In this document: piece after piece, positions 8,874 through 61,103 of the stretch
Position numbering within the stretch: the stretch's first letter is position 1
Layout: the number at the start of each line of letters is the position of its first letter
Assembly (NCBI GenBank): GCA_030035585.1
Contig: CM057466.1
Span: 58,349,233 to 58,413,232, forward strand
DNA from: Dugong dugon
Taxonomy: Eukaryota > Chordata > Mammalia > Sirenia > Dugongidae
Length of the DNA stretch: 64,000 nt
Direction: 5' to 3'
The notes under the pieces: model-generated
What the model was told of the DNA's origin: nothing
The model's input: the letters and a program-made list of their open reading frames with translations, nothing else
Databases searched by the model: none
Position numbers and translations under genes: made by a program

Positions 8874-8967
8874 CTTAGCAAAAAAAATCCAGGCTGCACA
8901 CTGCCCTGGGGCCACAGTGCTTTTTAGCTTCACTGTGCTGAGCATGAGAAAGAATCCTAAAAATCCA
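8874..8967 (-). CDS. TMEM241: TMEM241 exon (94 nt, GFLGFFLMLSTVKLK ... APGQCAAWIFFAK)
   Basis: The acceptor ttttctccttccag and donor AAG|gtaaga bound 94 nt. T completes serine, then 31 codons read a hydrophobic helix GFLGFFLMLSTVKLK, a short loop, and APGQCAAWIFFAK, ending in phase 0. The most C-terminal exon, which should encode another helix and a short tail, is not in 1-8873, so the gene continues left of the window. Confidence 0.95.
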
Positions 8968-9165
8968 CTGGAAGGAGAAAATATTCTTTAGTTAGTGAGG
9001 CTTGTCTTCCTTTAGCCAACAGCTAACTATTTTCTGCTACATTTACCAATCAATTTTTAATTATTACATAATTTGTATCTCATCTGTTTTCTAGTTATCT
9101 CTCGATAAAAACAAAAGCAAAATTAAAATAAGCTCTACTTTTCCAAGGAGCTATGGTGACAGCAA

Positions 9166-9350
9166 GGAGCCCTGGTAACACAACAGTTAAGCACTTGGCT
9201 GCGAACTGAAAGGGTGGCAGTACAAACCCACCTAGCCACTCTGCAGGAGAAAGACCTAGCGATCTGCTCCTGTAAAGATTACAGCTAAGAAACCCCCGTG
9301 GGGCTGTTCTAGTCTGCCACATGGGGTCGCTATAAGGTGAAATCGATAGA
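9166..9350 (+). repeat. AfroSINE (long form)
   Basis: It begins ggagccctggtaacacaacagttaag and includes the extra middle block aaagacctagcgatctgctcc. It ends near cgctataaggtgaaatcgat. It lies 200 bp from the TMEM241 exon at 8967. Confidence 0.85.
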
Positions 9351-9723
9351 ACCTAATAAAATAACATGATGACAGCATTTCATTGGAGGTGGGGAGAGGA
9401 TATAGGAAGTTAGGAGGTCTCTGGTTAAATCATGAAAGAAAAAAATGTGGAAAACAATACCTCATGCTCCCTCCCAAATTACCTGAAGAGCTTGGTGCTT
9501 GCCACAGTACAGCTTCAATCTTTTCCAAGCTCTACCAGGAAGCTCAAATTGTCAGGAAAAGACCTCAAAAGGGAAACTCATTCTACGAGAAGAGGGGCCT
9601 GGACCGGCTCTGGAGCTCAAGGTAATGTTCTAAAGGGGAGGGTGGGTTACAGGAACATGCGGGACAACTCCCCACACTGGGCAGACCTAAGATGCTTTGC
9701 TTTAGGGATGATGCCTCAGCACG

Positions 9724-9725
<2 letters not shown>

Positions 9726-9764
<39 letters not shown>

Positions 9765-9788
9765 GTGCGTGTGCGTGTGTGTGTGTGA
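9726..9788. repeat. (TG)n microsatellite
   Basis: About 63 bp of TG repeat with a few GC interruptions near the 3' side. It creates spurious low-complexity reading frames on both strands. Confidence 0.97.
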
Positions 9789-10231
9789 AGTAAAAGAGCC
9801 CAAACCATGGGAGCCTGAGGCTAGGGTAGCATCCTGGGCTATTCAGAGGTCTGGACCAGCAAGGGCACCGGCACAGCAATGGACAAGGAAGCAATGGCAT
9901 GCGCTGGAACCATTTTCAGAAGTTTCACTGTGTGGTCAAGGCCAAAGCAAAGGGAGCTCCAAACAGAATGGTCACTCTTACTGACATTTAGAGGCAGGAA
10001 ACTGTGGCAGAGGGTGTGGCAGAGTGGCCTCAACAGGAAGAGGTTGACTTCCTACAAATATGTGCAAGTAGAGCTTGGGTGTGAATTTTATCTGAAATTG
10101 AAAAGTGAAAAGCAAGAGACAAGACTGTAGTTGTACCCCAAGCCAGAGAGGCAGGGTATATGAGTTACATTTCATTTGTGCCTGCAGAGTCTCCAGTATC
10201 TCACCATTATCTGACCTTTATTATAGTCACT

Positions 10232-10447
10232 GGAGCCCTGGTGGTCAGTGGTTAAGGGTTCAGCGGCTAACCAAAAGGTCAGCGGTTCAAACCCAAGAGT
10301 TGCTCCGCGGGAGAGAGATGTGGCAGTCTGCTTTCACAAAGATTTACAGCCTTGGAAACCATATGGGGCAATTCTACTGTGTCCTACAGGGACACTATGA
10401 GTCGGAATCCACTCAACAGCAACGAGTTTGGCTTTTTGTTTGTTTGT
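10232..10447 (+). repeat. AfroSINE (long form)
   Basis: It runs from ggagccctggtggtcagtgg to ctatgagtcggaatccactcaacagcaacg with a T-rich tail (tttttgtttgtttg). Confidence 0.9.
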
Positions 10448-10449
10448 TA

Positions 10450-11990
10450 TAATCTCTGGTGTCTAAGCTCAGAGGCAGGATCCCAACTTGGCTTCTCTGT
10501 GATTCCCCACAGAGCCTATCTAACACAGTGCCTTTATCAAAGCAGGTATTAAAGAAATGCTTGTCAGGTTGAAGAAAGCAGGTTGAATGAGATTAACACA
10601 CCTAAGGTCGAATTTCACGGAAATCTGTACCTTTACCTCATCAGATTAGATGAGTGTACAGCCACATTCTTGGGGCAGGACCAGAGACGGGCATTAGGTT
10701 CCCACTGTGCAAACTTCAGCATGCTGGGCCCTGGTGGCCTGCACAGTTTGTTCACATTTGCATCTGCAGTTATGGGTGACTGGACAGCCACGGATTAAGA
10801 CATCAAGTCATTCACATCCGAAAGAGAGACTCCTTTGTGGGTAAGCGGCAAGCTGGAAATCAAGTGACCTGGACTTAGGTGTGCTCACGGACCCTCATAA
10901 CCTTAACCAAATCCCCCCTTTTTTCTTGCCTCAGGTTCTATGTTCTCGAAATAGGTGTAAACATAGCAATCCTCATCCTACCTTACGCAAATCAGAGCCT
11001 TTCAGAACAGAAAGATGGCTTAGCCCCCAAATCTTACTTTATTAACAAGGAAAAGGAGGCACAGACACAATTAGAATCCAGGTTTCCCGGCTCTTCAAAC
11101 AGCTCTATTTCCACCTCACCATGGGAAGAGTGACCAGGTGGACACAGGTGAGACAGTCCCTGTGCCCTTGGCCATGAGATGTGGAGCAGAGAAATAAAGA
11201 GGGGAGCTATGGAGACCGACCAGATGGGGAAGGGAGAGACGGGAAGGGAAAAGCCACAGCAGCTGGTGCTCCAGGGCTCCCCTGGTGGTTCTCAAGTCAC
11301 CCTGCACCCCAATGCCTGCCGAGCCTCCACACCCCTTCCCCTTGGTCTTCTCTCCTCTCCTCCCCACCTCCAGCTAGAGGAAGAGCTTGATTCCACTTGC
11401 ATTTTTTCCCTGGCCTCAGGCTCTGTGCTAGGACTAAGCTATTCCCAGTTTGTGAATGACATGCGTATGAGAAAGTCTATGAGTCTTCCTGTCACTTGAC
11501 TTGAGTGTGTGTGAATCATTTCTAAATCTTGCATGCATGGATACTTATCTTTCTCCTTCCACCTCCAGCTCTTCTGCCCCTGGCTATGCAGGCAGGTTGT
11601 AAATGTAGAGGGAGAATCCCAGAAGTGAAAGAGCCTTGCGCTCCCTGTTAATGGGTCTGCAGGTCACAGCCAGCATCGTCCCCTCAGGTCCCCATGGCCC
11701 CTTCTTAGTTCACCCAGGACCTCCTGAGGGTGACAATTCTCATTCTGAGATATGGTCATGGAAGAGGCATGAAATGACTTGGGGGAAACCTACGTCTTCT
11801 TAAACAGGTTAAAGTTGTGTGCTTAAGTCAGGGACTATAATATAACAGAATTAATTATTCCAAATAAAGGCTTCCAAATTTTAAAGTGGAAAAGCTGATT
11901 TTGCACGTTGAGCTATAAGAAAGTTGCAGATGAAAAGGGGCAGAAATACAGCCAGATGCCCCCAACCCACAAAGCCAACAGCAACGGGCT
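10450..11990. other. Intronic sequence with no recognised gene
   Basis: Between the SINE at 10232 and the repeat from about 12000 I see only unassigned intronic DNA. Short ORFs such as those at 10583-10798 and 11179-11499 show no domain, repeat or splice-consistent structure. Confidence 0.5.
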
Positions 11991-13920: not shown

Positions 13921-13990
13921 CTGGCACAGCAGCTGCCATGAAATCTGTAGAAATACAGGAACGGAAACTCCAGGACACTGAAGAGATCAC
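13921..13990 (-). CDS. TMEM241: TMEM241 exon (70 nt, DLFSVLEFPFLYFYRFHG...)
   Basis: The acceptor cgtgcccttcccttcag and donor CAG|gtaatc bound 70 nt. Two bases complete glycine, 22 codons begin DLFSVLEFPFLYFYRFHG and continue S-C-C-A, and two bases of serine close the exon. The aromatic FPFLYFYRFHGSCC block matches human TMEM241 closely. The next exon in the transcript is 8967-8874. Confidence 0.95.
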
Positions 13991-18412: not shown

Positions 18413-19816
18413 AAAAAGATAACACTCCTGGACGGAGGTGGCGAAGGAAGAAAGGAGGAAGCCCAGGAAGGTGGCAGAGGCTGCGAGGCTAGGCTTGCGG
18501 GGCTTGTTGGACTTGTGGGGCTGAAGCGGATGCCATGGACCATCTGTACTGCACACAAGACCCTGTGCCCGAGGCTGTGGGCGGCGACATGCAGCAGCTG
18601 AACCAGCTCGGCGTGCAGCAGTTCTCAGCCTTTACAGAAGTGATTTTCCACTTCCTAGCTGAGCCAAAAGAGGTGGAAAGGTTTCTGGCTCAGCTCTCTG
18701 AATTTGCCACCACTAATCAGATCAGTCTTGGCCCCCTCAGAAGCACCGTGAAAAGCCTCCTGCTGGTGCCAAATGGTGCCCTGAAGAAGAGTCTCACAGC
18801 CGAGCAGGTCCGGGCTGATTTCATAACTCTGGGTCTTAGTGAGGACAAAGCCACTTACTTTTCTGAAAAGTGGAAACAGAATTCCCAGACCCTTGCTCAG
18901 TGGGCCATAAGTCAGACTCTGATGATTAACCAGTTTATAGATATGGAGTGGAAATTTGGAGTGACATCTGGGAGCAGTGAATTGGACAAAGTGGGAAGTA
19001 TTTTTTTACAATTAAAGTTGGTGGTTAAAAAAGGAAACCAAACTGAAAATTTGTATATAGAATTAACTTTGCCTCAGTTCTACAGCTTCCTACAAGAGAT
19101 GGAGCAAGTCAGAGCCAGCATGGAGTGTTTCAGCTGATTTCTGTCCCCCTACATCTCTGCCTTGCCACCCTCCCCTCCCTGGGTGACTGCTCTGAGAGGT
19201 ACCTCACTCACAGGCCTGTTGGGTGCTCATTTTGCCCTTGTTTGCCTCTTGGGAGCCCAGGTGTAAAGGTTTCTGAAAAACTACAGGATTAAGTACTTTA
19301 AGAGCCCTACACGATCACCCTGTAAACTCTTTGTTAAGGAATCACCACCCATCTCCCAGGATACTTTTTAGATACTCAAAACAGATTCAGGGAAGAAAAT
19401 GAGTTGAGTCACCTCCCCATCAAAACTCTATGTATACAGATGGTGCCATCACTCAAGATACACACAGACCACCCTTCCCCCAAAAGAACAAGAACTCATT
19501 TATGGCTGAACAAGAAGCAGACTGTAGGAATGGCACGTGTGGAGAGCCCCAAGGATTTCTGCACACTTTCTTTGTGGTGGTGGGGCAATGATAATCAGTT
19601 TTTAACTGAGCATTGTGTATAAACATGTGATTGGTCATCTCTGAAAAGAACTGAGGCTAAACTCTGCCCCCAGTTCTGGTTTTGCCCTGTTGTGTTATAA
19701 TAAGGTGGGCCTTTTGAGGCTATTTGAGCTTGTTTTGGTTGAAGCTGACCTCTGTTGGTTAGGTGCTGAATAAAAAAGGTTCTGAAGGGAAAAAAAAGAA
19801 AAAGATAACACTCCTG
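18413..19816 (+). mobile_element. L1-mediated retrotransposed COMMD7 cDNA with target-site duplication
   Basis: The same 18 bp (aaaaagataacactcctg) flank the copy at 18413-18430 and 19799-19816. Between them lie a GC-rich 5' UTR (from 18431), the ORF, a 3' UTR to about 19790, an AATAAA signal at 19769-19774, and an A-rich tail (gggaaaaaaaagaa). Perfect duplications, the A-tail and absence of introns are the hallmarks of L1-driven reverse transcription of an mRNA. The 5' UTR looks near full length. Confidence 0.93.
18535..19137 (+). CDS. COMMD7: COMMD7 retrogene/retrocopy, intact 200-codon ORF
   Basis: The ORF starts at an ATG in good Kozak context (gccATGg) and runs 200 codons to TGA without interruption. 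I recognise COMM domain-containing protein 7 over its full length: N-terminal AVGGDMQQLNQLG, the helical HN region with EPKEVERFLAQLSEFATTN, and the C-terminal COMM domain (about residues 133-200) with MEWKFGVTSGSSEL and LPQFYSFL. It has the normal family length. COMMD7 acts in the COMMD/CCDC22/CCDC93 (Commander) complex and in NF-kappaB control. The parental mammalian gene is multi-exonic; here there are no introns, so this is a retrocopy. It lies antisense within a TMEM241 intron. An out-of-frame ATG sits 5 nt upstream. Whether it is transcribed cannot be seen; the lack of disabling mutations suggests it is young or selected. Confidence 0.88.
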   Translation: MDHLYCTQDPVPEAVGGDMQQLNQLGVQQFSAFTEVIFHFLAEPKEVERFLAQLSEFATTNQISLGPLRSTVKSLLLVPNGALKKSLTAEQVRADFITLGLSEDKATYFSEKWKQNSQTLAQWAISQTLMINQFIDMEWKFGVTSGSSELDKVGSIFLQLKLVVKKGNQTENLYIELTLPQFYSFLQEMEQVRASMECFS

Positions 19817-20257
19817 CAATACTTTGTGAAGAACTGCACCATTTAAGCACAAATAAGTGGTTAAAAGATGTGCCAACATGTTTTGTGGCATCAACGTGCA
19901 GCTTATAAATAAGGTCTGAGTTAAGCCTTCATTCTTGTTTTCCATAGTTACTACTCTGCTCTCTCTGAGTGAGGGAGTGAGTCCCATTTCTCTAAAGATG
20001 ACAGAGTATAAAGTTGCCACAGTAAAAAGTGTGGCATAATCTTAGCACATTCAAGACTAACTGGTATTTAAACATCAAGAAAATGTCCTCTCACCTCATC
20101 TTACCCCTCATTACTGGAAGAAAATGGAAGGGTCAATTCCAAGGTATAATGCTTGCTTTATCGACACACCAACAATAGACACACCAGGTAACAAGGTCAT
20201 TTCTGTATCAGATTCCTGTGGATCTCCCTGTTCTTCCAGTTCTTTGAAATTCTTTCT

Positions 20258-21036: not shown

Positions 21037-22742
21037 GTTGTTGCAAGCTGCCATCAAGTCTGTTCTAACTCATAGCGACCCTATGTACAACAGAAAGAAA
21101 CCCTATCCAGTCCTGCACCATCCTCATGATTCTTACTGCTTGAGCCCATTGTTGCAGCCACTGTGTCAATCCATCTCTTTGAAGGTCTTCCTCTTTTTCG
21201 TTGACCCTCTACTTTACCAAGTATGAGGTCCTTCTCCAGGGACTGGTCCCTCCTGATAACATGTCCAAAGCATGTGAGACAAAGTTTCGCCATCCTTGCT
21301 TCTAAGAAGCATTCTAGCTGTACTTCTTCCAAGACAGATTTGCTCTTTCTCTTGGCAATCCATGGTATGTTCAATATACTTCACCGACACCATAATTCAA
21401 AGGCATCAATTATTTTTTCGGTCTTCCTTATTCATTATCCAGCTTCTACATGCATATGAGGTGATTGAAAATACCATGACTTGGGTCAGGTGCACCTTAC
21501 TCCTCTAAGTGACATCTTTGCTTTTCAACACTTTAAACAGGTCTTTTGCAGCAGATTTGCCCAACGTAACATGTCGTTTTATTTCCTGACTGCTGTTCCC
21601 ATGGATGTTGACTGTGGATCCAAGTAAAATGAAATCTTTGACAACGTCAATCTTTTCTCCATTTATCATGATGTTGCTCATTGGTCCAGCTATGAGGATT
21701 TTTGTTTTATATTGAGGTGTAATCCATACTGAAAGTTGTAGTCTTTGATCTTCATTAGTAAGTGCTTCAAGTCCTCTTCATTTTCTGCAAGCAAGGTTGT
21801 GTCATCTGCGTATCACAGGTTGTTAATAAGTCTTCCTCCAATCCTGATGCCTCGTTCTTTCTTCACAGTCCAGCTTCTCAGATTATTTACTTAGCATATG
21901 GACTGAATAGTATGGTGAAAGGATGCAACTCTGACACATCTTTCCTGACTTTAAACCATGCAGAACCCCCTTGCTCTGTTCAAATGACTGCCTCTTGGCC
22001 TATGTACAGATTCCTCATGGGGACAATTAAGTGTTCTGGAATTCCCATTCTTTGCAATGTTATCCATAATTTATTATGATCCACACAGTTGAATGTTTTT
22101 GCAGCATCAATAAAACACAGGTAAACATCTTTTTGGCTATTCTCTGCTTTTAGCCAAAAGCCATCTGACATGATCAATGATATCCCTCGTTCTACATCCT
22201 CTTCTGAATCTGGCTTGAACTTCTGGAAGTTCCCTGTCAATATGCTGCTGCAACCACTTGTGAATGATCTTTTGCAAAATTTTACTTTGTGTAATATTAA
22301 TGACACTGCTCGATAATTTCTGCATTCTGTTGGATCACCATTCTTTGGAATGGGCACAAATATGGATCTGTTCCAGTCAGTTTCCTAGGTAGCTGTCTTC
22401 CAAATTTCTTGACATAGATGAGTTAGCACCTCCAGTGCTGCATTCATTTGTTGAGACATCTCAACTGATAACCCGTCAATGCCTGAAGCCTTGTTTTTTG
22501 CCAATGCCTTCAGTGCAGCTTGGACTTCTTCCTTCAGTACCATCGGTTCTTGATCATATGCTACCTCCTAAAATGGCTGAACGTCAAAAAATTCTTTTTG
22601 GTACAGTGACTCTGTGTATTCTTTTCATCTTCTTTTGATGCTACATCATTCAATATTTTCCCTATAGAATCCTTTAATATTGAAACTCAAAGCTTGAATT
22701 TTTCTTCAGTTCTTTCAGCCTGAGAAGTGCTGAGCTTGCTTT
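21037..22742 (-). mobile_element. RTE-clade LINE (RTE1_LA-like), copy 2
   Basis: Antisense RTE throughout, from the 3' tail (aagctgccatcaagtctgttctaactcatagcgacc) to near gagaagtgctgagc. A minus-strand fragment 21980-22357 encodes RT motifs (MPIPKNGDPTECRNYRAVSL, then FIDAAKTFNCVDHNKLW). Stops and frameshifts are present. Confidence 0.88.
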
Positions 22743-27657: not shown

Positions 27658-27692
27658 CTGTAGGATGGGATGCAAACGCCAGCAGCACCACA
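27658..27692 (-). CDS. TMEM241: TMEM241 exon (35 nt, VVLLAFASHPT-G)
   Basis: The acceptor tttgtgtgtctttttcag is followed by 35 nt: T completing serine, 11 codons VVLLAFASHPT, and the first G of glycine; the donor is CAG|gtaatc. The glycine is completed by GT of the exon at 13990. A second, stronger-looking donor (CAG|gtacgt) lies 74 nt further at 27583, and the intervening sequence is open in the same frame. A MaLR-like solo LTR ends about 165 bp downstream in transcript sense. Confidence 0.92.
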
Positions 27693-35275: not shown

Positions 35276-36503
35276 TTGCTGGGAGGCTGTAATATTGGGG
35301 GGAGGCCCACCAGGGAAAGTCTCACCCCTACGGTCTGAGAGGCATGGGTGGTTTGGGAGAGGGGAGGGTGCTGAGCCACCTTCTGTGTTCCAATGTCATG
35401 GAAACATGTTAAAAACCAAGAGACTTCTGCATTCTTCAAAAAGTCTGAAGAGGAAGCTGGTGGGTCTGAGCAGAGTAGAACTAGTGATTATTTTTAGCTG
35501 AGTACAATAGAGGATCACAGCCATGCTTGGGGCGGGGACTCTGCTCTGAAAAAGGCGTTTTAATAAATACCAAGATATTTATGAGCTTTATTTATGAGAA
35601 TACAGCTCTAGTTGAATGTTTTAAGCAGAGACTCTTCCTCCAGAAACACACATGACCAAATGCTGAAAGGTACATCTCCAACCTTGGTCCTCTTCATGTG
35701 ATGTCACTGCATTAGGCAAACTAGGGTTTCCAACAGCAAATTTCTCTCTGTTTCTCAACTAGGTCCTTGCAGTGTACGGTTGACTTAGCTGGCTGGCTCC
35801 TATCCTTGGCTGGGCTTAAGCAAGAGTACCACGTGTCTAAATATTTAACAATTATAAATCAAACCTAAAACTTCACCCTACCTTAGTTAACAAATATATC
35901 TTCAAAACAGCCTGGAAGGCCAGATTAAAATGTAGAATTCTTAGAGTCCCTGGAGCCTCATGTCAGAATGTGGCAGTATGGGAAGACCAGCCCCTGGTTC
36001 CCAGCTCCCAATGCGCCCCTTCTCTTTCCACCCCAGGCTCCATCCCGTGTGGGCACCTCAGCCTACAAGTTCACATTCCATGTATACTCCTTCCCACCAC
36101 AGCCTCCCTCTAGACACCCCCTAGGCCTAAGAATGAGTTAGAAGGATAAACCCCCGGAGGCCTGACATCGAGCTCTAGACCACTTGGGCAGGAAATTCCA
36201 GGGCATGTTCTAGAACTGAGAGTGTGGGCCCAGAGATAAAACTTCCCCTTAGCTGACAGACTCCATGTCCCACGGGGAGGGGTACAGCCCTCACTAGTGC
36301 GGGTCCTAGGCAGAGGCCCTGCTTGCCTGTTCTAAGGGCAGGATGACTATTTGGTCTCCACAACCTCTGGCCACCTCACAAATTATTTAACTTGTCTTCC
36401 CGGCAGGCACACTGGCTCAGAAGTCTCTAACCAAAATATTAGAATTAGAATCAAAATCTAGAATGATATGAGTTGTTCTTTGACAATGTAAATTATACTT
36501 TAC
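35276..36503. other. Intronic sequence, no recognised element
   Basis: I find no repeat family or coding signal before the TMEM241 exon at 36504. Confidence 0.45.
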
Positions 36504-36539
36504 CTGAATATATAGTTTAAATACTGCTGGTCAATGTCA
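36504..36539 (-). CDS. TMEM241: TMEM241 exon (36 nt, DIDQQYLNYIF)
   Basis: A long pyrimidine tract (gttttttccctttcattccttag) precedes 36 nt: one base completing serine, 11 codons DIDQQYLNYIF, and two bases of the next serine; the donor is CAG|gtaaag. DIDQQYLNYIF is essentially identical to the human TMEM241 segment as I remember it. The outer L1 begins only about 205 bp on the upstream side of this exon (transcript sense), in the adjoining intron. Confidence 0.93.
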
Positions 36540-40502: not shown

Positions 40503-41548
40503 ATGCCCCGAAAACAGCAAACAATATCAAAATATTTACAAAAACAAGACAAAATGGCTCCAATAGGCGTCCAAATTAAAACACCAGATAACTCTCCTGT
40601 GGAAGAAAATGCACTAGAAGTACCTGATAGGGAATTCAAATCACTAATACTCGGAATATTCCAAGAACTGAGGCAAAAAGCTGACAAACATGAGGAAAAA
40701 CTAGACAAATTTATGGAAAATACAGACAAAATATTGGAAGAATTCAGGAAGATGATGCAGGAACAAAATGCCAAAATAAATTCACAACTAGAAATTATAC
40801 AAAAACAACAATTAGAAATCCAAAAGATAAACAACAAGATTTCAGAAACGGATGATGTCATAGAAGGGCTGAGAAGTAGATTTGAAACCGTTGAAGACAG
40901 GATCAGTGGAACTGAAGACAAACACTTGGATACAACTCTGTTTCAGGAAAACTCAGAAAAAAGAACAAAGAAAAATGAAGAGACCCTGAGAGTTATGTGG
41001 GACACAATTAAAAGCAAAAATTTACAAGTGATTGGCATCCCAGAAGAGGGGGAGAAAACAGAAAACACAGAGAGGATCATTGAGGAACTGCTAACAGAAA
41101 ACTTTCCCAATATCATGAAAGATGAAAAGCTGGCCATCCAAGAAGCTCAACGAACTCCATATAGAAGAGACCCCAAAACAAAATCACCAAGACATATCGT
41201 ATTCACACTCGCCAAAACTAAAGACAAAGAATCCAGAGAGCAGCTCATGAAAAACAAGAAGTCACATACAGAGGAGAAACAATAAGACTAAGCTCACATT
41301 ATTCAGCAGAAACCATGCAGGCAAGAAGGCAGGAGGATGACATATATAAAATCTTGAAAGAAAAAAATTGTCAGCCAAAAATAATATATCCTGCAAAACT
41401 CTCGTTCAAATTTGATGGTGAAATTAGGTCATTTCCAGATAAACAGAAACTAAGGGAATATGCAAAAGTCAAACCAAACTTACAAGAATTATTAAAGAGA
41501 GTTCTTCGATCAGAGGACAAACAGCTTCAGCCCTCAGGCAGGACCTAG
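40503..41548 (+). pseudogene. Inner L1 ORF1 (RNA-binding protein), one frameshift
   Basis: Frame 40503-41285 (260 codons) starts MPRKQQTISKYLQKQDKM. It has a long coiled coil (about residues 40-130, with EEFRKMMQEQNAKINSQLEI), an RRM (NLQVIGIPEEGEKTENTERI) and the start of the C-terminal domain. A frame change after 41280 moves the rest (41315-41548, YPAKLSFKFDGEIRSF) to another frame. It would be about 340 residues if intact, normal for L1 ORF1p. Confidence 0.92.
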
Positions 41549-41970
41549 GACGCAGGATCATACGAGCCAGATACCATTCTAGGTAATGATCTCTCGAGGA
41601 CTATCCAAAACCAAAAGAAATACAACAGGGAATCAGAGCAATCAATCAAAGGGTGACAACAACATCAAAACAATGAAAGAGTGAATAAACGGCATAGGTA
41701 TAGAACCTTCTAACGGAGAGGAAGGCAAGGCGATACCAAGTAAGGGTAGACTGCTTCAAACTTATAAAGATAAGGGTAAAATTCATGGTAACCACAAAGA
41801 AAGTTAACAAACATATTCATTAAAAAAAGAGGAAAAACATAAAGTCTCAGCAAAAACAAAACCTACAAAAACAAAAGAAATGAACACAAAATCCACAAAC
41901 AAAACTAACTCAGCACAAGAGAGTAAGAAGAACAAAGAAAACTTCAGCACCACAAAAAAAGCACTACAAA

Positions 41971-44900
41971 ATGACAGCAACAAACCTCCATCTATCAATA
42001 ATTACACTGAATGTAAATGGACTCAGTGCACCCATAAAGAGATGGAGAGTGGCAGAATGGATAAGAAAACAGGATCCATCCATATGCTGTCTACAAGAGA
42101 CACACCTTAGAAACAAAGATGTGAATTTATTAAAAATCAAAGGTTGGAAAAAAATATATCAAGCTAACAACTACCAAAAAAGAGCAGGAGTGGCAATTCT
42201 AATCTCAGATAAAATAGACTTTAAAACAAAATCTACCATAAAAGACAAAGAAGGACACTATATAATGATTAAGGGGACGATACATCATGAAGACATAACC
42301 ATAATAAACATCTACGCACCCAATGACAGGGCTCCAAAATACATAAAAAAAACTCTAACAACACTGAAAAGAGAAATTGACAGTTCCACGATAATAGTAG
42401 GAGACTTCAACACATCACTCTCAGTAAAGGACAGAACAACTAAGAAGAAACTCAGCAAAGATACAGAAGACCTAAAGGACACAATCAGCCAACTGGACCT
42501 CATAGACATATATAGAACAATCCATCCAACCGCTGCAAAGTACACATTCTTTTCCAATGCACATGGAACGTTCTCCAGAATAGACAACATCTTAGGCCAC
42601 AGGGCAATCCTCAACAAGATCCAAAACGTTGAGATAATTCACAGTATCTTCTCTGACCACAATGCCATCAAGGTAGAAATTAACACTAGAAAGAGCAAGG
42701 AAAAAAAATCAACTACATGGAAACTGAATAATACCCTGCTTACACATCAATGGGTAATAGAAGAAATCAGAGATGGAATCAAAAATTCCTAGAATCAAAT
42801 GAAAATGAAAACACATCATACCAAAACTTTTGGGACACAGCAAAGGCAGTCCTCAGAGGACAATTTATAGCAATAGATGCACATATCAAAAAAGAAGAAA
42901 GGGACAAAATCAAAACATTAACTACAGAACTCAAACAAATAGAAAGACAACAGCAAAAAAAGCCTACAACCACCAGAAGAAAGGAAATAGTAAAGATCAG
43001 AGCAGAAATCAATGAAATAGAGAACAGAAAAACAATAGAAAGAATCAACAAAACCAAAAGTTGGTTCTTTGAAAGAATCAACAAAATCGACAAACCACTG
43101 GACAGACTGACAAAAGAAAAACAACAGAGGACACAAATAATCAAAATAAGAAATGAAATGGGGGACATTACAACAGACACAACCGAAATAAAAAGGATTA
43201 TAACAGAATATTATGAAAAACTATATTCCAACAAATTTGAAAACCTAGAGGAAATGGATAAATTTCTAGAAACACACGGCCTACAACAAAGTGATGTTGA
43301 AAATCTGAACAGACCCATAACAGGAGAAGAGATTGAAAAGGTAATAAAAAAACTCCCAACCAAAAAAAGCCCTGGCCCAGATGGAGTCACTGGAAAATTC
43401 TACAAAACATTTACAGAAGAGCTTATACCAGTTCTACTCAAGCTATTTCAGAGCACAGAAGAGGAAGCAACACTTCCAAATTCATTCTATGAAGCCAGCA
43501 TAACGCTGATACCAAAACCAGGCAAAGACGTCACACAAAAAGAAAATTACAGATCAATATCTCTCAGGAATATAGATGCAAAAATTCTGAACAAAATTCT
43601 AGCCAACAGAATTCAGCATCATATCAAAAAAATAATACACCACGACCAAGTAGGATTCATACCACATATGCAAGGATGGTTTAACATTAGAAAATCCATC
43701 AACGTAATTCACCACATAAATAAAAGGAAAGAAAAAAATCACGTGATCATCTCAATTGACGCAGAAAAGGCATTTGACAAAGTCCAACACCCATTCCTAA
43801 TAAAACCTCTCAATCAAATAGGTATAGAAGGGAAATTTCTCAACATAATAAAGGGCATCTATGCAAAAACAACAGCCAACATCATTCTTAATGGAGAGAG
43901 GCTGAAAACATTCCCCTTGAAAACAGGAACAAGACAAGGATGCCCTTTATCACCACTCCTATTTAACACTGTGCTGGAAGTTCTAGCTAGAGCAATAAGG
44001 CAAGAAAAAGAAAGAAAGGGCATCCAAATTGGTAATGAAGAAGTTAAACTGTCCCTGTTTGCAGATGATATGATACTACACATAGAAAACCCTAAAGACT
44101 CCACGAGAAATCTACTGGAACTAATAGAAAGATTCAGCAGAGTAGCAGGATACAAGATAAACATTCAAAAATCAGTTGGTTTCCTATACACCAGTAAAGA
44201 GAAGATGAAAAGGAAATCAGGAAATGAATACCATTTTCAATAGCCCCTAAAAAGATAAAATACTTAGGAATAAATCTGACCAGGAATGTAAAAGACCTAT
44301 ACAAAGAAAACTACAAAACACTGCTGCATGAAACCCAAAGGGATCTACATAAATGGAAAAACATACCATGCTCATGGATAGGCAGACTCAACATTGTGGA
44401 AATGGCAATTCTACCCAAAGCAATTTACAAATACAATGCAATCCCGATCCAAATACCAGCAACATTCTTCAAAGAGATGGAAAAACTAATTATTAACTTT
44501 ATATGGAAAGGGAAGAAGCCCTGAATAAGTAAAGCACTACTGAAGAAGAAGAATAAAGTTGGAGGACTCACACTACCTGACTTGGGAACCTACTATACAG
44601 CTACAGTAGTCAAAACAGCCTGGTACTGGTACAACAACAGATACATTGGCCAATGGAACAGAATTGAGAACCCAGATGTAAATCCATCCACCTACGGTCA
44701 CCTGATTTTCGACAAGAGCCCAAAGTCCATCAAACGGGGAAAAGACACTCTTTTTAACAAATGGTGCTGGAAAAACTGGATATCCATTTGCAGAAAAATG
44801 AAACAGGACCCATACCTCACACCATATACAAAAACTACTTCAAAATGGATCAAAGACCTGAATATAAAGCCTAAAACTATAAAGTTCATAGAAGAAAAAA

Positions 44901-45782
44901 CAGGACCAACACTTCAGGCCTTAATACACAGCATTAACAGGATACAAACCATAACCATCAACGCACAAAACCCAACAGATAAACTAGATAACTGGGATCT
45001 TCTAAAAATCAAACACCTATGCTCTTCAAAAGACTTCACCAAGAGTCAAAAGAGAACCTACAGACTGGGATAAAATTTTTGGACAGTACAAGTCAGACAA
45101 AGGTCTAATCTCCATAATCTACAAGAAAATCCAACACCTCTACAACAAAAAGACAAACAATCCTATCAAAAAATGGGCAAAGGAAATGAACAGACACTTC
45201 ACCAAAGAAGACATTCAAGCAGCCAACAGACACAAGAGGAAATGCTCGCGTTCACTAGCCATTAGAGAAATGCAAATTAAAACCACAATGAGATACCATC
45301 TTACCCCAGCATTACTGGCACGAATCAAAAATACTGGAAATAACAAATGTTGGAGGGGCTACGGGGAGATGGGAACTCTTATACACTGCTGGTGGGAATG
45401 CAAAATGATACAACCATTTTGGAAAATGATATGGCATTTCCTCAGAAAGCTAGAAATAGATATACCATTCAATCCAGCAATCCCACTCCTAGGAATATAT
45501 CCTAGAGAAATAAGAGTCATCACTCGAATAGACATATGCACACCTATGTTCATGGCAGCATTGTTCACAATAGCAAAACGATGGAAACAACGCAGGTGCC
45601 CATCAACAGATGAATGGATAAACAAACTATGGTACATACACACAATGGAGTACTATGCAACGAGAAAGAACAACAGTGAATCTGTGAAGCATCTCATAAC
45701 ATGGATGAAACTGGAGGACATTATGCTGAGTGAAATAAGTCAATCACAAAAGGACAAATATTGTATGAGACCTCTATTGTAA
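41971..45782 (+). pseudogene. Inner L1 ORF2 (endonuclease-reverse transcriptase), few disabling changes
   Basis: The AP-endonuclease domain (41971-42784) keeps NVNG, QETH, IYAPND, VGDFN and SDHN motifs. The frame shifts near 42780. RT runs 42750-44243 with [15 protein letters not shown] and FADD (44058-44069). Another break near 44230 and a TGA at 44524 precede the C-terminal fragments 44582-45073 ([17 protein letters not shown]) and 45186-45782 ([16 protein letters not shown], cysteine-rich end). With three or four lesions it is recent but dead. Confidence 0.93.
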
Positions 45783-47746: not shown

Positions 47747-50700
47747 ATTACAGCGCTAAACGCATATCTATCAAGAATTACGCTGAATGTAAATGGACTA
47801 AATGCACCAATAAAGAGAAAGAGAGTGGCAGATTGGATAAAAAAACACGATCCGTCTATTTGCTGCCTAAAAGAGATACACCTTAGACCTGAAGACACAA
47901 ACTAACTAAAACTCAAAGGATGGAAAACAATACATCAAGCAAACAACACACAGAAAAGAGCAGGAGTGGCAATATTAATCTCTGACAAAACAGACTTTAA
48001 AGTAAAATCCACCACAAAGGATAAAGAAGGACACTACATAATGATTAAAGTGTCAATACACCAGGAGGATATAACTATAGTAAATATTTATGCACCCAAT
48101 GACAGGGCTCCAAAATACATAAAACAAACTCTAACACCACCAAAAAGAGAGATAGACAGCTCCACAATAGTAGTAGGAGACTTCAGCACACCACTTTCAG
48201 TGAAGGACAGAATATACAGAAAGAAGCTCAACAAAGACATGGAAGAGCTAAATGCTACAATCAACCAACTTGATCTCATAGACATAAATCGAACACTCCA
48301 CCCAACAGCAGCCAAGTACGCTTTCTTTTCCAACGCACGTGGAACATTCTCCAGAATAGACCACATACTAGGCCATAAAACAAGCCTTAACAAAATCCAA
48401 AGCATTGAAATATTACAAAGCGTATTTTCTGACCATAAAGCCATAAAAGTAGAAATGAACAACAGAAAAAGAAAGGAAAAAAAATCAAACACATAGAAAC
48501 TGAACACCTTGAGCTACTGGGTTATAGAATAAATTAAGGATGGAATAAAGAAATTCATAGAATCAAACAAGAATGAAAACACATTTTACCAGAACCTTTG
48601 GGACACAGCAAAAGCAGGGCTCAGAGGTCCGTTTATAGCAATGCATACATCCAAAAAGAAAGGGCCATAATCAAAACATTAGCCCTACAACTGGAACAAG
48701 TAGAAAGAGAGCAGCAAAAGAAGCCCTCAGGTGCCAGAAGAAAGGAAATACTAAGAATTGGAGCAGAATTAAATGAAATAGAGAATAGAAAAACTGAAAA
48801 AGCTAAGGAGACCAAAAGCTGGTTCTTTGAAAAGATCAACAAAATTGATAAACCACTGGCCAAACTCACACAAGAAAAACAGGACAGGATGCAGATAACC
48901 TGTATAAGAGAAGAGATGGGAGACATCACAACAGACCCAACTGAAATTAAAAGAATCATAACAGAATACTATGAAAACCATACTGTAACAAATTTGAAAA
49001 CCTAGAGGAAATGGGCAAATTTCTACAAACTCACTATCTGCCTAAACTAACACAAACAGAGGTAGAACAACTAAACAAACCCATGACAAAAGAAGAGATT
49101 GAAAAGGTAATTTAAAAATTCCCAACAAAAAAAAAGCCCTGGCCCAGATGGCTTCACTGGAGAATTCTACCAAACTTTCAGAGAAGAGTTAACACCATTA
49201 CTACTAAAGGTATTTCAGAGCATAGAAACTCCCAAACTCATTCTAGGAAACAAGCATAACCCTGATGCCAACACCAGGAAAAGACATCACAAAAAAGAAA
49301 ATTACAGACCAATATCCCTCGTGAAAATTGACACAAAAATCCTCAACAAAATTCTAGCCAATAGAATTCAGCAACATATAAAAAAAATAATTCATCATGA
49401 TCAAGTAGGATTTATACCAGTTATGCAGGGATGGTTCAACATTGGAAAAATAATCAATGTAATCCATCACATAAATAAAACAAAAGACAAGAACCACATG
49501 ATCTTATCAATCAATGCAGAAAAGGCATTTGACAAAGTCCAACACCCATTCATGATCAAAACTCTCAACAAAATTCCTCAATACAGTTAAGGGCATTTAT
49601 ACAAAGCCACCAGCCAAAATCATCCTAAATGGAGAGACTTTGAAAGCATTCCCCTTGAGAACAGGAACCAGACAAGGATGCCCTTTATCACCACTCGTAT
49701 TCAACACTGTGCTGGAGGTCCTAGCCAGAGCAATCAGGCTAGAAAAAGAAATGAAGGGCATCCAAATTGGTAGAGAAGAAGTAAAAGTATCTCTTTATGC
49801 CGATGATAGGATCTTATACACAGAAAACCCCAAAGAATCCACAAGAAAACTACTGGAACTAATAGAAGATTTCACCAAAGTCTCAGGATACAAGATAAAC
49901 ACACAAAAATCAGTTGGATTCCTTTACACCAGCAAACAGAACCTCGAAGAGGAAACCACCAAATGAATACCATTTACAATAGCCCCCAAGAAGATAAAAT
50001 ACTTACGAATAAATCTAACCAGAGACATAAAAGACCTATACAATGAAAACTACAAGACACTACTGCAAGAAACCAAGAGACCTGCATGAGTGGAAAAACA
50101 TACCTTGCTCATGGATAGGAAGACTCAACATTGTGAAAATGTCAATGGTACCCAAAGCGACCTAAAGATACAATGCAATTCCGATCCAAATTCCACCGGG
50201 ATTTTTTAGTGAGATGGAGAAACAAATCACCAACTTCACATGGAAAGGGAAGAGGCCCCAAATAAGTAAAGCATTACTCAAGAAGAACAAAGTGGGAAGC
50301 TTCACACTACCTGATTTTAGAACCTATTATACTGCCACGGTAGTCAAAACAGCCTGGTATTGGTACAACAACAGATACACAGACCAATGGAATAGAATTG
50401 AGAATCCAGACATAAATTCATCCACCTATGAGCAGCTGATATTTGACAGGCCCAAAGGCTGTTAACTGGGGAAAAGACAGTCTCTTTAACAAATGGTGCT
50501 GGCATAACTGGATATCCACCTGCAAAAAACTGAAACAAGACCTATACCTCACACCATGCACAATAACTACCTCAAAATGGATCAAAGACTTAATTATAAA
50601 ATCAAAAACGATGAAGATCATGGAAAAAAAATAGGGACAACACTAGGAGCCCTAATACATGGCATAAACCCAATACGAACCATAAGTAACAATATACAAG

Positions 50701-51530
50701 CACCAGAACAAAGACTAGATAACTGGGAGTGCCTAAAAATCAAACACTTAGGCTCATCAAAAGACTTCACCAAAAGAGTCAAAAGACAACCTACAGACTG
50801 GGAAAAAAAAAATTGGCTACGACAAATCCGATCAGCGTCTAATCTCTAAAATCTACAAGATACTGTAAAACCGCGACAACAGAAAAACAAATAACCCAAT
50901 TAAAAAATGGGCAAAGGATATGAACAGGCACTTCGCCAAAGAAGATATTCAGGCAGCTAACAGACACATGAAGAAATGCTCATGATCATTAGCCATTAGA
51001 AAAATGCAGATCAAAACTACAATGAGATATCATCTCACCCCAACAAGGCTAGCATTAATCCAAAAAACACAAAATAATAAATGCTGGAGAGGTTGTGGAG
51101 AAACTGGAACACTTATACAGTGCAGGTGGGAATGTAAAATGGTACACTTTGGAAATCAATTTGGTGCTTCCTTAAAAAGCTAGAAATAGAAGTACCATAC
51201 GATCCAGCTATCCTACTCCTTGGAATATATCCTAGAGGAATAAGAGCCATCACACAAATAGATACACACACACCCATGTTCATTGCAGCACTGTTCACGA
51301 TAGTAGAAAGAAGGAAACAACCTAGATGCCCATCAACAGACAAATGGATAAACAATCTATGGTATATCCTCACAATGGAATACTATGCAACCACACAATG
51401 GAATACTATCCAACGATAAAGAACAACGATTAAGCCGTGAAACATAACATGGAGGAATCTAGAGGTCATTATGCTGAAGGAATTTAGTCAGTCACAGAAG
51501 GACAAATATTGTATAAGACCACTATTATAA
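47747..51530 (+). pseudogene. Outer L1 ORF2 (endonuclease-reverse transcriptase), decayed
   Basis: The start codon position reads ATT (47747) instead of ATG. The endonuclease region is readable in 47766-48496 (LNVNGLNAPIKRKRVADW, VNIYAPNDRAPKYIK, TIVVGDF, SDHKAIKV). RT is in 49321-49966 with YADD (49796-49807) where the inner copy has FADD, plus [10 protein letters not shown]. The C-terminal domain at 50214-50849 and 51000-51500 is fragmentary. There are many frameshifts and stops, for example after 48496, 49005 and 49590. Confidence 0.88.
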
Positions 51531-53850: not shown

Positions 53851-53896
53851 CTTAGCACGTTGGGCTTCTGGGACTTCTGTCGTATCCTATAAGCTC
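53851..53896 (-). CDS. TMEM241: TMEM241 exon (46 nt, AYRIRQKSQKPNVL)
   Basis: The acceptor cccttcattttcag and donor AAG|gtaaac bound 46 nt. Two bases complete a glycine, 14 codons read AYRIRQKSQKPNVL, and the last two bases begin a serine finished by the exon at 36539. This is a basic loop of the transporter-like protein. An AfroSINE ends about 175 bp away, at 53674. The next intron (17.3 kb) holds the nested L1 pair. Confidence 0.92.
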
Positions 53897-54699: not shown

Positions 54700-54748
54700 C
54701 TACACAGAATAAGTGAATTATAGCCCAAAAATATCCATCTGGATCAAA
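54700..54748 (-). CDS. TMEM241: TMEM241 exon (49 nt, FDPDGYFWAIIHLFCV)
   Basis: The acceptor ...tatcgtgttttacag and donor TAG|gtaagt bound 49 nt that start in phase 0 and code FDPDGYFWAIIHLFCV plus the first base of a glycine codon. It follows directly on NDSQ of the previous exon. The YFWAIIHLFCV part is a membrane helix. The other two frames contain stops, so the reading frame is unambiguous. Confidence 0.93.
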
Positions 54749-56808: not shown

Positions 56809-56860
56809 CTGGGAGTCATTGAAGGGAAGGCATCCTGCAGCAGCCAGGAGGAAGAGGGCA
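56809..56860 (-). CDS. TMEM241: TMEM241 exon (52 nt, membrane segment ALFLLAAAGCLPFNDSQ)
   Basis: The acceptor tctcctttccacag and the near-consensus donor CAG|gtaagt flank 52 nt. The first base completes the serine begun in the 61078 exon. The remaining 17 codons read ALFLLAAAGCLPFNDSQ, a hydrophobic helix ending in a polar turn. The exon ends in phase 0. It is separated by 2060 bp of intron from the next exon at 54748. Confidence 0.93.
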
Positions 56861-57399: not shown

Positions 57400-58240
57400 A
57401 CAAACACGCAGAACCTGAATCAAATCATGAAGAACACTGAGACAAACTCAAATTTAGGGACAGTCCACAAAACAATGGGCCTACAGTCTTCAAAAACAGT
57501 GCAATGAAAGACTGAGGAACTGTTCCAGGTTAAAGGATATGAAAAAGACAGGGTGGTCTCTTTTAGAGAAAAAATTGCTATAAAAAAACAACATTGGGAT
57601 AATGGGAAAAATCTGAACGTGAACTCTACATTAGATGATAATACTGTATCAGATGTAGAATTTTCTAAATTTGATAACTGCACTGTGGTTATATAAGAAA
57701 TTGTCGTTGATTTTAGGGGTAAAGGGTCATGATCTCCGAAATGTATTCTCAAATAATTCAGAAAATTCAGATACAAAATAAGAGGAAGAATAATAATGTT
57801 TATATTCTAATATATTCTATATATATTACATACATGTGTATATATGTAGCTATGATTCAGAATCGACTCACATATACATAGACACACACATAAACAGAGA
57901 GAGAGAGAAAGCAGATACAAAAAATATTATCAATGGATGAATCTAGGTGAAGGGTATATGGGAGTTCATTGTAATATTCTTGCAATTTTTCAGTAGGTTC
58001 AAATCTTTTTTCTTGAATAAAAGTTTTATTAGGAAAATCTTTTAAACATACTGAACTATTTACAGATGAAATGCTATCATGCCTGGGACTTACTTCAGAA
58101 TAAGAAGTGAGGAAGTAGGTGGGACCAGGAGTTGATAATTGTTGAAGCTGGGTGACATGTATGTGGGGCTTCATTATACAATTGTGTCTACTTTTATGTA
58201 TGTTTATAAATTTCCATAATAATTTTTTTTAAATTCTTAT
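57400..58240 (+). mobile_element. Old L1 (L1M) 3' UTR sequences
   Basis: gggacagtccacaaaacaatggg, ctgaggaactgttccaggttaaagg, ggtgaagggtatatgggagttcattg and a second terminus tgtttataaatttccataataa match ancient L1 3' ends. A (TA)n-like stretch near 57800-57850 lies between them. Confidence 0.6.
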
Positions 58241-58837
58241 ACAAAAAAGCAACATTGGTAATCACAGATATTTCAGAAAGCTATTCTCATTCACTAGAAA
58301 GTCAGTTTGGAGCTTTCTTTTGGTTCAATAATCATTGGTTTTCTCTCTCCTGAGTTTCGTATGTCAAAATATTTTGCCCTCTCGCTTTCCCTAATCATTT
58401 TCTCCTCCTAAAAGAAGATACCAGAGGCAAAAAACCCAAACTATCACACACTCTCCCCTCGTTCCATTTTATCATGCACCAACATGTACAGTGTTGGGCC
58501 CTTTCACTACTGACCATTCCATTAGGCAGCAAAGGGCAAAGGATTAAAGGCCTGAGAGAAAACAATGACTACAGTGTTCTCACTCTTAGGGGACTTCGTC
58601 ATAGGACATCTCATACCAGTATATTTTCTACATACATATAGAGTTCTATATTTAGACTGTATATCATATATATTACACATACGTAATTTACAATATTCTG
58701 ATACTTCTAATGTGAGTAGTACACTGAGAAGACTGCTGCTAATCAATTCTGCCAACAGCCCCGTTGTAATCACCTGTAGTTACACACCCAACAGGCTTCC
58801 TGTGACTGATAGAGAGGAGGCTCTGGCGCTGGGAGCC

Positions 58838-58928
58838 TACACACACACACACACACACACCCCTACACACACACACACACCCCTACACACACCCCTACAC
58901 ACACAGACACACACACACACAGACACCC

Positions 58929-59008
<80 letters not shown>
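58838..59008. repeat. (CA)n microsatellite with interspersed CCCCTA units
   Basis: About 170 bp. The left half alternates ACACAC blocks with cccctacac units, and the right half is an uninterrupted (CA)n of about 75 bp. Confidence 0.97.
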
Positions 59009-59010
<2 letters not shown>

Positions 59011-59599
59011 CCTAGAGAAGAATCTAAGGCCCTGGATGGTGAGGGACTCAAAGGCAAGGGAAGAGGGGAGGGAGTGAGGCGGAGTTTGTCAGGGAGGGTG
59101 TATGGGACTGAACAGGAACAGGTAAGTTTCAAGCGGTAGGGAGGGGAATCCTAGTGAGTGTCTACCTATGGTGAACCTCATGCACAGGGAAGGAGTGACA
59201 GAGATCCCCTCAACAGACAAATCCTAGGGGTTGGGGAGAGAGGGACGACACCAAGGTGTGAGACAGCTTCCTGGTTTCCCACCAAACTTGTGCCCTGAGC
59301 AATACATGATTATATCAGGTATTAGTGGTCTTTAATGCCTTTCTTTAACACCTGCTAATCTTTTAAAGAAGAGAATAAGTCCGGAGGATTTGTTTTTCAA
59401 GTAGCTGCCTGTAACGAAGGCAAAAAACGGACTGGATGAAAGCCCAGAAATATTTGAAACAAAAAGTCCTAAATCCATGTATCAAAGCATCTCTTGTGGT
59501 TTTCCATCTAAAGGACTGAGCTTCTTAGCTGCTAAGCATGGAGGAAGCAGGCAGTGGGCAAAGAACAAGGCATCAGGTTAGAATTTGAATGCTGGAGCT

Positions 59600-59750
59600 G
59601 GAGGGATCTTCAAGAGAGTCCAGCCGGGTTCGTGTTTCAGCTGGGGAAACTGAGGCACAGGGAGTTATGAACCCTGCCCATGATCCTTTGCTGTGGCCCA
59701 GAGCTAACTCAGATGCCCCAACTCGCAGGCCAGTGCTTTTTCTACCACAG
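59600..59750 (-). repeat. MIR-like SINE fragment
   Basis: gctggggaaactgaggcacagggagttatgaaccctgcccatgatc and the following gagctaactcagatgccccaac match reverse MIR. Confidence 0.55.
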
Positions 59751-60019
59751 AAAATATTGAAAACCCAATAAACTTCAAAAATTATTTTAAAAAATTGTAA
59801 GTCGTTTTCATGTTTTTTATTTTCACTCTCCATCAGTATTGTACAACTATTTGTTAGTGAAGCTTCAGGTAACAACAGCTGAAATCTGGTATGGGTTTGT
59901 CTTGTTTGCTTTCCCCTTAGGAATAAAATATTTCAGAAAAAAAAGAGAATAAATTTCTGAATAAGACACAAAACAAGGCTATATGAGTCTTGAGGTACAG
60001 TGAAATTACTTAATACAGT

Positions 60020-60910
60020 CCTTCTAGCCATGGTTTTTGTGACTCCCACACAATAATCTGGTGAAACTGTGCAAATAAGATGCTTGTGGCTCACCAAGGG
60101 GACTGGCCAGCTTGCTGCTAATGTAAATAAGGTACATGGCACTCTTGTGGGGGTGGGACTATGTGAATAAGGTGTATGGAACCCTAACAAAGGGATTCAT
60201 TAGTTTTACCATTCCACTAAGCTTAAAAATGAGCCATCCCAGAGGTGGAAAGGAGGGACCTCGCCACCACCAAGAAAGAAGAGCTATGAGTGGAAAAGCA
60301 TCACTTGGGCCCAGGATCCCTGCACTGAGAACCTCCTAGATCCAAGAGACAGAGAAAGAGAGAGATCTAACACTGGAGACCATGAGAAGCAGCAGCAGAG
60401 AAACAGTGGCAGCAGAGGCAGCAGAAAAAGGAGGTGGCACAGTGTACTTTACCACCCACTGAGCGAGAAAGTTAAGCGCCTTTGGGAAGGAGGCTTACTG
60501 GTGGAGTGGGGTGCCTCTGGGCACTTATCAGTGGAGCTAAAGAGCTTTGTAACACCTGCCCAAGAGGACAGAGGCCAAGACTGAGAGCTGAGAGCCAGAC
60601 AGAGGCATGCCTGCCGGCACAGCTGAGAAGAAGCTGTCCTGATCGAAGAACTGTATCTTGAGTCATTTCTGATCGTGAATTATATAACCTGTTACTTCCC
60701 TAATAAACCCCATAATTGTGAGTATGGTCTTTGAGTTCTGTGTGGCCACTGCAACGAATTATTGAACCCAACAGAGAAGTAGAGAGTGCCGTGGGAGGGA
60801 TGGCTGGTGTCAGAATTGGTAAAAAGGTTGGACAGCAGAGGTATATCTGACTCCTGCCTCATAGGAATCAGCCCTGGGCTGATGCTAATGCTGATGATTC
60901 TCCCCCCCCT
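60020..60910 (+). repeat. LTR-like repeat related to 11990-12660
   Basis: The 3' part contains ttccctaataaaccccataattgtgagtatgg, tttgagttctgtgtggcc and ctcctgcctcataggaatcagcc, shared in order with 12410-12650. It contains an AATAAA (60702-60707). Boundaries and family are uncertain. Confidence 0.45.
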
Positions 60911-61077
60911 TGTGAAGTCAGAGGAGGTCAGATGCCCTGGCACGCCATTTTTACAGTGTTTATAATACATGCCTCTGTCAGCAACCAGGAGACAAATCTT
61001 CAACAAGCAGTTTATCATCATAGTTAAAAATTAGGTTAAGTCTTTTACTTTAGGGGCTGTTTTTTCTTAAAACTTAC

Positions 61078-61103
61078 CTACAGATCTTTGCAGGAGAAGT
61101 TTT
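61078..61103 (-). CDS. TMEM241: TMEM241 exon (26-nt microexon, KTSPAKIC-S)
   Basis: The minus strand shows a pyrimidine-rich acceptor (tttctttactttcatacag), then 26 nt coding K-T-S-P-A-K-I-C plus two bases of a serine codon, then the strong donor AG|gtaagt. The serine is completed by the first base of the next exon at 56860. The exon starts in phase 0. It is the most upstream TMEM241 exon I can find in the window. At 26 nt it is a microexon that ORF-based gene finding would miss. The peptide matches the polar stretch that precedes a membrane helix in the human protein. Confidence 0.9.

What the first reader, a model, noticed from the sequence alone, without database searches (positions are those of the whole stretch)
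8874..61103. A complete chain of eight tiny exons of TMEM241 on the minus strand
The strongest hidden signal in the window is invisible to ORF finding: exons of 26, 52, 49, 46, 36, 35, 70 and 94 nt spread over 52 kb. Every junction splits codons consistently (serine three times in the AG|T pattern, glycine twice), the 136 codons are open, and the product matches TMEM241. The reconstruction explains why the window holds almost no other gene content: it is one gene's introns.
Basis: partly seen in the sequence, partly recalled or inferred. Interest (0 to 1): 0.75.

Follow-up and report, generated by a model that had tools for sequence, protein, structure and literature searches.

The report
Middle eight exons of mammalian TMEM241

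Summary
Eight minus-strand exons (26, 52, 49, 46, 36, 35, 70, 94 nt; 61103 to 8874) lie between AG/GT sites, join to 408 open nucleotides, and encode residues 120-255 of TMEM241. "Complete chain" is wrong: they are coding exons 6-13 of 15. Exons 1-5 and 14-15 lie outside the window on the same contig; together they form an ATG-to-TAA frame of 296 codons over 222 kb. The nearest listed relative is manatee TMEM241, identical at 269 of 270 aligned residues, so the animal is probably a sirenian. RIO1, RMC1 and NPC1 domain hits nearby fit the known neighbourhood. The gene is known: PMC10689955 reports a cis-Golgi UDP-GlcNAc transporter. Corrections: the AG|T serine occurs four times, not three, and one of seven junctions is phase 0. 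One point deserves a test: the 36-nt exon (36504-36539) encodes the segment aligning with the FYNN base-recognition motif of yeast Vrg4 (YLNY here), keeps the frame when skipped, and is missing from 12 of 120 listed homologue models. The window also carries a COMMD7 retrocopy with an intact frame.

The parts
61078..61103 (-). TMEM241 coding exon 6 (26 nt), phase 0 in
   Evidence: AG/GT flanks, frame continuity, orthologue alignment; at noise level by similarity alone
56809..56860 (-). TMEM241 coding exon 7 (52 nt)
54700..54748 (-). TMEM241 coding exon 8 (49 nt); the junction to exon 7 is phase 0
53851..53896 (-). TMEM241 coding exon 9 (46 nt)
   Evidence: similarity alone below the best shuffle hit
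36504..36539 (-). TMEM241 coding exon 10 (36 nt, frame-preserving, phase 2/2); encodes the SDIDQQYLNYIF segment (first serine shared with exon 9) that aligns with the Vrg4 FYNN motif; absent from 12 of 120 listed homologue models
   Evidence: similarity alone below the best shuffle hit
27658..27692 (-). TMEM241 coding exon 11 (35 nt)
13921..13990 (-). TMEM241 coding exon 12 (70 nt)
8874..8967 (-). TMEM241 coding exon 13 (94 nt); its last codon is the lysine that aligns, in a weakly supported stretch, with the lysine of Vrg4's GALNK motif

Best explanation
The eight intervals are coding exons 6-13 of the TMEM241 orthologue of a mammal, most likely a sirenian (manatee or dugong kin). Shown by sequence: the gene has 15 coding exons, an open 296-codon frame from ATG to TAA, GT-AG introns, and TMEM241's neighbours. 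Inferred from orthology: after splicing it makes a multi-helix SLC35-type membrane protein of the cis-Golgi that brings UDP-GlcNAc into the lumen, where it feeds mannose-6-phosphate tagging of lysosomal proteins such as NPC2. Also inferred, with much less support: that skipping the 36-nt exon 10, which keeps the frame but removes the segment aligned with the base-recognition motif of Vrg4, would give a protein unable to bind its substrate.
For: Exact exons and open frame. Exons 1-5 and 14-15 found in order on the same contig and strand, joining to 296 codons with a start and a stop. 692 homologues, 120 listed; those that carry a name are TMEM241 in at least one source. 269/270 aligned residues identical to Trichechus inunguis and 238/255 to Elephas maximus. 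69 of 81 isoform gap ends in the window's part lie on a predicted exon edge. Genome search with the recalled human protein: 11 of 12 matches lie in this locus and the twelfth is weak (E 2.15), so no second copy was seen, though only the best candidates are scored. Domain hits beyond the gene's coding start, at 32 to 102 kb: RIO1 (3 of its 9 hits), RMC1_C (2 of 2), NPC1_N (3 of 4). Profile match to the GDP-mannose transporter Vrg4 (E 8e-14 and 5e-13). Function from PMC10689955.
Against: No RNA reads were available, so splicing in this animal is predicted, not seen. Three of eight exons are not above the best shuffle hit by similarity alone with P0001, four with P0003. 12 of 81 isoform gap ends fall off the predicted edges, and the exon 6/7 junction is supported by one protein only. 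The Pfam TPT model is below its cut-off (16.5 against 30 bits). The structure model is of low confidence (mean pLDDT 53.9). Papers disagree on the closest human SLC35 relative: SLC35A3 (PMC10689955), SLC35D or SLC35E4 (PMC9333335).
Confidence: 0.98

Rival explanations
1. The intervals are remnants of a decayed or unitary pseudogene of TMEM241 in this lineage.
For: No transcript evidence is available here.
Against: The frame is open over 296 codons and the 14 introns have GT-AG borders; all but one of 270 aligned residues match annotated Trichechus inunguis TMEM241.
Confidence: 0.01
2. The exons belong to a duplicate copy or paralogue (another SLC35 member) rather than to TMEM241 itself.
For: TMEM241 is distantly related to other SLC35 proteins.
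Against: The only match elsewhere in the genome is weak (E 2.15). Identity over aligned residues is 89-99.6% in the 15 best rows of annotated relatives. Gene neighbours fit TMEM241.
Confidence: 0.005
3. Chance assembly: short open intervals with AG/GT flanks chosen by eye.
For: The strand offers 4,517 AG and 4,026 GT sites, and three or four of the eight exons are not above the best shuffle hit by themselves.
Against: Four to five exons exceed the best hit of 60 shuffles and the reversed window, and seven hits lie in gene order on one strand. The chain continues in frame into exons outside the window.
Confidence: 0.001

Closest known systems
TMEM241 of Trichechus inunguis (P0007, annotated isoform of 270 residues)
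   Same: 269 of 270 aligned residues identical; 135 of 136 in the window's part
   Different: The listed isoform lacks the 26 residues of coding exon 5 (outside the window); one residue differs, V243 against M
Human TMEM241, UDP-N-acetylglucosamine transporter (PMC10689955)
   Same: 251 of 284 aligned residues identical to human isoform P0055 and 251 of 291 to P0014
   Different: Ordinary species divergence; the human sequence that I recalled as first query is not exact (282 of 284 against P0055)
Yeast and Candida Vrg4 GDP-mannose transporter (PDB 5oge, 9s35)
   Same: Profile match: positions 10-279 with 9s35 (E 8e-14), 7-206 with 5oge (E 5e-13); the first asparagine of FYNN and the lysine of GALNK are kept
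   Different: FYNN (YYNN in Candida) reads YLNY, and GALNK reads IFFAK in TMEM241 (the second alignment is weakly supported), so guanine/mannose specificity is not expected

Membership tests
TMEM241 orthologue | High identity over full length to annotated TMEM241 | tested here: met
   265/296 to porpoise P0001, 269/270 to manatee P0007
TMEM241 orthologue | Intact frame with start, stop and canonical introns | tested here: met
   15 coding exons, 14 GT-AG introns, 296 codons
TMEM241 orthologue | Gene neighbourhood RIOK3 - RMC1 - NPC1 | tested here: met
   Domain hits RIO1 58.530-58.532 Mb (+), RMC1_C 58.566 Mb (+), NPC1_N 58.595-58.600 Mb (-) on the same contig. Which RIO kinase it is was not tested, and the human gene order is recalled; passages of PMC10550162 place the four genes in one chromosome 18 locus
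TMEM241 orthologue | Expressed, spliced message with these junctions | not testable with these tools
   No RNA reads. Indirect: 69 of 81 isoform gap ends in relatives fall on the predicted edges
SLC35 / DMT nucleotide-sugar transporters | Sequence relation to a solved nucleotide-sugar transporter | tested here: met
   Vrg4 5oge and 9s35 by phmmer and profile
SLC35 / DMT nucleotide-sugar transporters | Pfam TPT (PF03151) above gathering score | tested here: not met
   16.5 bits against cut-off 30; 6 of the 120 listed homologues carry it as a precomputed domain; PMC9333335 also calls the TPT similarity weak. The placement here rests on the Vrg4 match and on published work, not on Pfam
SLC35 / DMT nucleotide-sugar transporters | Ten-helix fold | tested here: inconclusive
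   The model of orthologue P0001 shows ten helices of 15 residues or more, but mean pLDDT is 53.9. The five Foldseek hits with E <= 0.001 are Vrg4 and SLC35B1 (E 2e-4 to 7e-4), with TM-scores of 0.34 and rmsd near 20 A
GDP-mannose transporter (Vrg4 type) | FYNN and GALNK motifs | tested here: not met
   Aligned residues are YLNY (N185 kept) and IFFAK (K255 kept). The second comes from the 9s35 alignment alone, with low per-column confidence there
UDP-GlcNAc transporter | Transport of UDP-GlcNAc into Golgi | not testable with these tools
   Reported for the human gene in PMC10689955; here by orthology only

The most novel reading that the evidence does not exclude
The 36-nt exon 10 (36504-36539) is a conserved on/off cassette: its 12 residues (SDIDQQYLNYIF) align with the Vrg4 FYNN segment on TM7 that reads the nucleotide base, it keeps the frame when skipped, and it is missing from models of animals in five mammalian orders. 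Skipping could make a stable but transport-dead TMEM241, so splicing could tune Golgi UDP-GlcNAc supply and lysosomal sorting.
Probability: 0.15. Interest if true: 0.5.

Novelty: already known. Interest (0 to 1): 0.2.

Why it matters
As a discovery it matters little: TMEM241 is annotated in many mammals, and its function has been published. It shows that very short exons (26-94 nt) hidden in 52 kb can be read correctly from raw sequence. The useful by-product is a testable point. The segment that aligns with the base-recognition motif of this transporter family sits in its own frame-preserving 36-nt exon, which some models of relatives lack. If real, splicing would offer a simple control over mannose-6-phosphate tagging and lysosomal cholesterol export.

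Tried and rejected
Structure prediction on 32 orthologues gave a low-confidence model (mean pLDDT 53.9), so the fold match is only suggestive.

Extra exons: 27 inserted segments (9 residues or more) from relatives' isoforms were searched in the window (whose printed list was cut; repeated in full at E <= 0.05). Four matched intronic DNA on the right strand and in the matching intron: 35727-35617 (E 4e-10), 20248-20156 (E 1e-6), 8565-8503 (human isoform P0055, E 0.002) and 11096-11040 (E 0.006). The first has an in-frame stop, and I saw no clear exon with AG and GT borders around any of the four, so they were not added to the gene. Some may be shared old repeats (a guess, not tested). Two further matches (E 0.03 and 0.05) lie on the other strand.

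Circular RNA: PMC9372085 reports circTmem241 from mouse exons 8-14, formed through complementary intron sequences (passages and section 6 read). By the numbering used here its flanking introns would be 7 and 14; they share an inverted match of 197 columns at 76%. Of the 20 intron pairs with any match, self-pairs included, 12 have a stronger one, so this is no evidence. Introns 5 and 13 were searched only in part, and the mouse numbering could not be checked.

Rfam at gathering scores and ARAGORN found nothing. The pattern search only served to place the window in its genome.

Literature on exon 10: 'TMEM241' with 'microexon' gave 0 papers and with 'exon skipping' 1 paper, not opened. A third search listed 10 of 4,097 papers, none of the 10 with TMEM241. 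One search listed 30 of 63 papers that hold TMEM241. PMC9397453 lists a TMEM241 exon-skip event in ovarian cancer, but the passages seen do not say which exon. So I cannot say that exon 10 skipping is unreported.
Full report
OBSERVATION. Each has AG before and GT after, each string occurs once on that strand of the window, and together they give 408 nt = 136 codons without a stop. Of the seven junctions, four split an AG|T serine codon, two split glycine, and one is phase 0.

CHANCE. With two orthologues as queries, the best single hit in 60 dinucleotide shuffles was 30.4 bits (P0001) and 35.8 (P0003); the reversed window gave 22.3 and 23.5. The real window gave seven hits on one strand in gene order, 64.3 to 28.5 and 62.4 to 25.0 bits. 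Five (P0001) or four (P0003) of them exceed the best shuffle hit; the others do not. Chains were not scored in the shuffles. The 26-nt exon is at noise level by similarity (21.9 bits) and rests on frame, splice sites and orthologues. By a simple consensus score, donors and acceptors are in the upper tail of GT and AG sites of that strand: top 0.05-3.4% and 0.5-12%.

THE WHOLE GENE. The window is C8:58349233-58413232 of a 3.16-Gb genome. Protein search of that genome placed further exons on the same contig and strand, and fetched stretches gave their borders. The assembled gene has 15 coding exons, 14 GT-AG introns, and 296 codons from ATG to TAA over C8:58275650-58498124. The window's exons are numbers 6-13, so the chain covers 136 of 296 residues.

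IDENTITY. A database search with the joined protein returned 692 homologues among 7,995 scored candidates; 120 are listed, and those that carry a name are TMEM241 in at least one source. The closest is Trichechus inunguis, 269 of 270 aligned residues, then Elephas maximus, 238 of 255, which points to a sirenian (taxonomy); the species itself was not determined. In the 120 listed proteins the three commonest long gaps are residues 176-188 (12 proteins), 93-119 (10) and 40-66 (7). They match exons 10, 5 and 3, which are exactly the internal exons whose length is a multiple of three. In the window's part, 69 of 81 ends of gaps and insertions (6 residues or more) lie within one residue of a predicted edge, where 21 of 139 positions would qualify. 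Each of the nine edges is touched, by 15, 1, 4, 3, 14, 15, 5, 3 and 9 proteins from edge 119 to edge 255; the 12 ends off the edges come from 7 proteins. Neighbours: RIO1 hits at 58.530-58.532 Mb (+; 3 of 9 hits), RMC1_C at 58.566 Mb (+; 2 of 2), NPC1_N at 58.595-58.600 Mb (-; 3 of 4, the fourth and best on C10). PMC10550162 (passages) places TMEM241, RIOK3, RMC1 and NPC1 in one human chromosome 18 locus.

FUNCTION. PMC10689955 (abstract, outline, one results section and two passages read) reports TMEM241 as a cis-Golgi UDP-GlcNAc transporter needed for mannose-6-phosphate tagging of NPC2. Its mouse knockout deletes exons 6-10; if numbered as here these sum to 209 nt, not a multiple of three, which fits the reported early stop. 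Relation to the family: profile match to Vrg4 at E 8e-14 and 5e-13; Pfam TPT only below cut-off. PMC9333335 (passages) also groups TMEM241 with SLC35. Structure prediction of the porpoise orthologue is weak (pLDDT 53.9) but shows ten long helices; the best fold matches are Vrg4 and SLC35B1 with low TM-scores (0.34) and rmsd near 20 A.

A POINT WORTH TESTING. In the profile alignment FYNN of yeast Vrg4 (YYNN in Candida) falls on TMEM241 residues 183-186, YLNY, encoded wholly by the 36-nt exon 10. GALNK falls on IFFAK (251-255), ending with the last codon of exon 13; this second register comes from the 9s35 alignment alone and its per-column confidence is low there. PMC6789118 (passages) assigns FYNN to guanine recognition, with N221 the more selective asparagine, and GALNK to sugar discrimination. 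PMC6927460 (passage) gives YYNA and GCIKN for SLC35D1. In TMEM241 the first asparagine and the lysine are kept, while the N221 position is Y, which fits a base other than guanine. Exon 10 is carried by 107 of 120 listed proteins with few changes, skipped by 12, and not assessable in 1. The 12 come from primates, carnivores, a tree shrew, a rodent and a hedgehog (species, orders recalled); the listed proteins stand for clusters at 90% identity, so these are not counts of species. The one listed manatee isoform carries exon 10. Whether the skipped form is made in quantity, or matters, is unknown. Predicted database isoforms can be splicing noise, hence a probability of 0.15.

OTHER CONTENT. An intact 200-codon COMMD7 ORF (18535-19137, +) is a processed copy: no introns, an A-rich tail, and an 18-nt target-site duplication at 18413-18430 and 19799-19816. 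Over ungapped sites it differs from the intron-containing parent on C2 at 16 of 603 coding sites (10 in codons with changed residue, 6 synonymous), 12 of 104 5' sites and 31 of 647 3' sites. The intact frame may simply reflect youth; nothing here shows selection. L1-like ORF pieces lie within 40503-45782 and 47906-50849 (four pieces tested), and a different reverse-transcriptase fragment at 21980-22384.

VERDICT. Observation and identification are right; the thing is an ordinary part of a known gene. Interest is low except for the exon 10 hypothesis.

Noticed in passing
window 18413-19816 (+), ORF 18535-19137: Processed COMMD7 retrocopy inside TMEM241 intron 11, antisense to it, with an intact 200-codon ORF, an A-rich tail and an 18-nt target-site duplication; 16 of 603 coding differences from the parent on C2, and a more diverged copy with one stop on C13. 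No sign of selection was shown.
   Followed up: partly
window 40503-45782 and 47906-50849 (+): L1-like ORF pieces, probably two broken elements; four pieces tested gave Pfam hits to the L1 RBD-like domain, reverse transcriptase (twice) and endonuclease.
   Followed up: partly
window 21980-22384 (-): Reverse-transcriptase fragment that reads unlike the L1 copies, possibly of RTE/BovB type (type recalled, not tested; Pfam RVT_1 20.5 bits, below its cut-off of 29.6).
   Followed up: no
window 35617-35727, 20156-20248, 8503-8565 and 11040-11096 (all -): Intronic DNA similar to extra coding segments of TMEM241 isoforms of porpoises (P0017, P0004), black-footed ferret (P0012) and human (P0055), each in the matching intron; no clear splice borders here, and an in-frame stop in the first.
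   Followed up: partly
G000 C8:58275650-58600619: TMEM241 and the RMC1 and NPC1 domain hits, from genes reported to act in lysosomal cholesterol export, lie within 325 kb. The human locus with these genes is already discussed in PMC10550162.
   Followed up: partly
G000 C10:13802691-13803452 (-): Best NPC1_N hit, in one open frame of 538 codons, probably NPC1L1 (name recalled).
   Followed up: no
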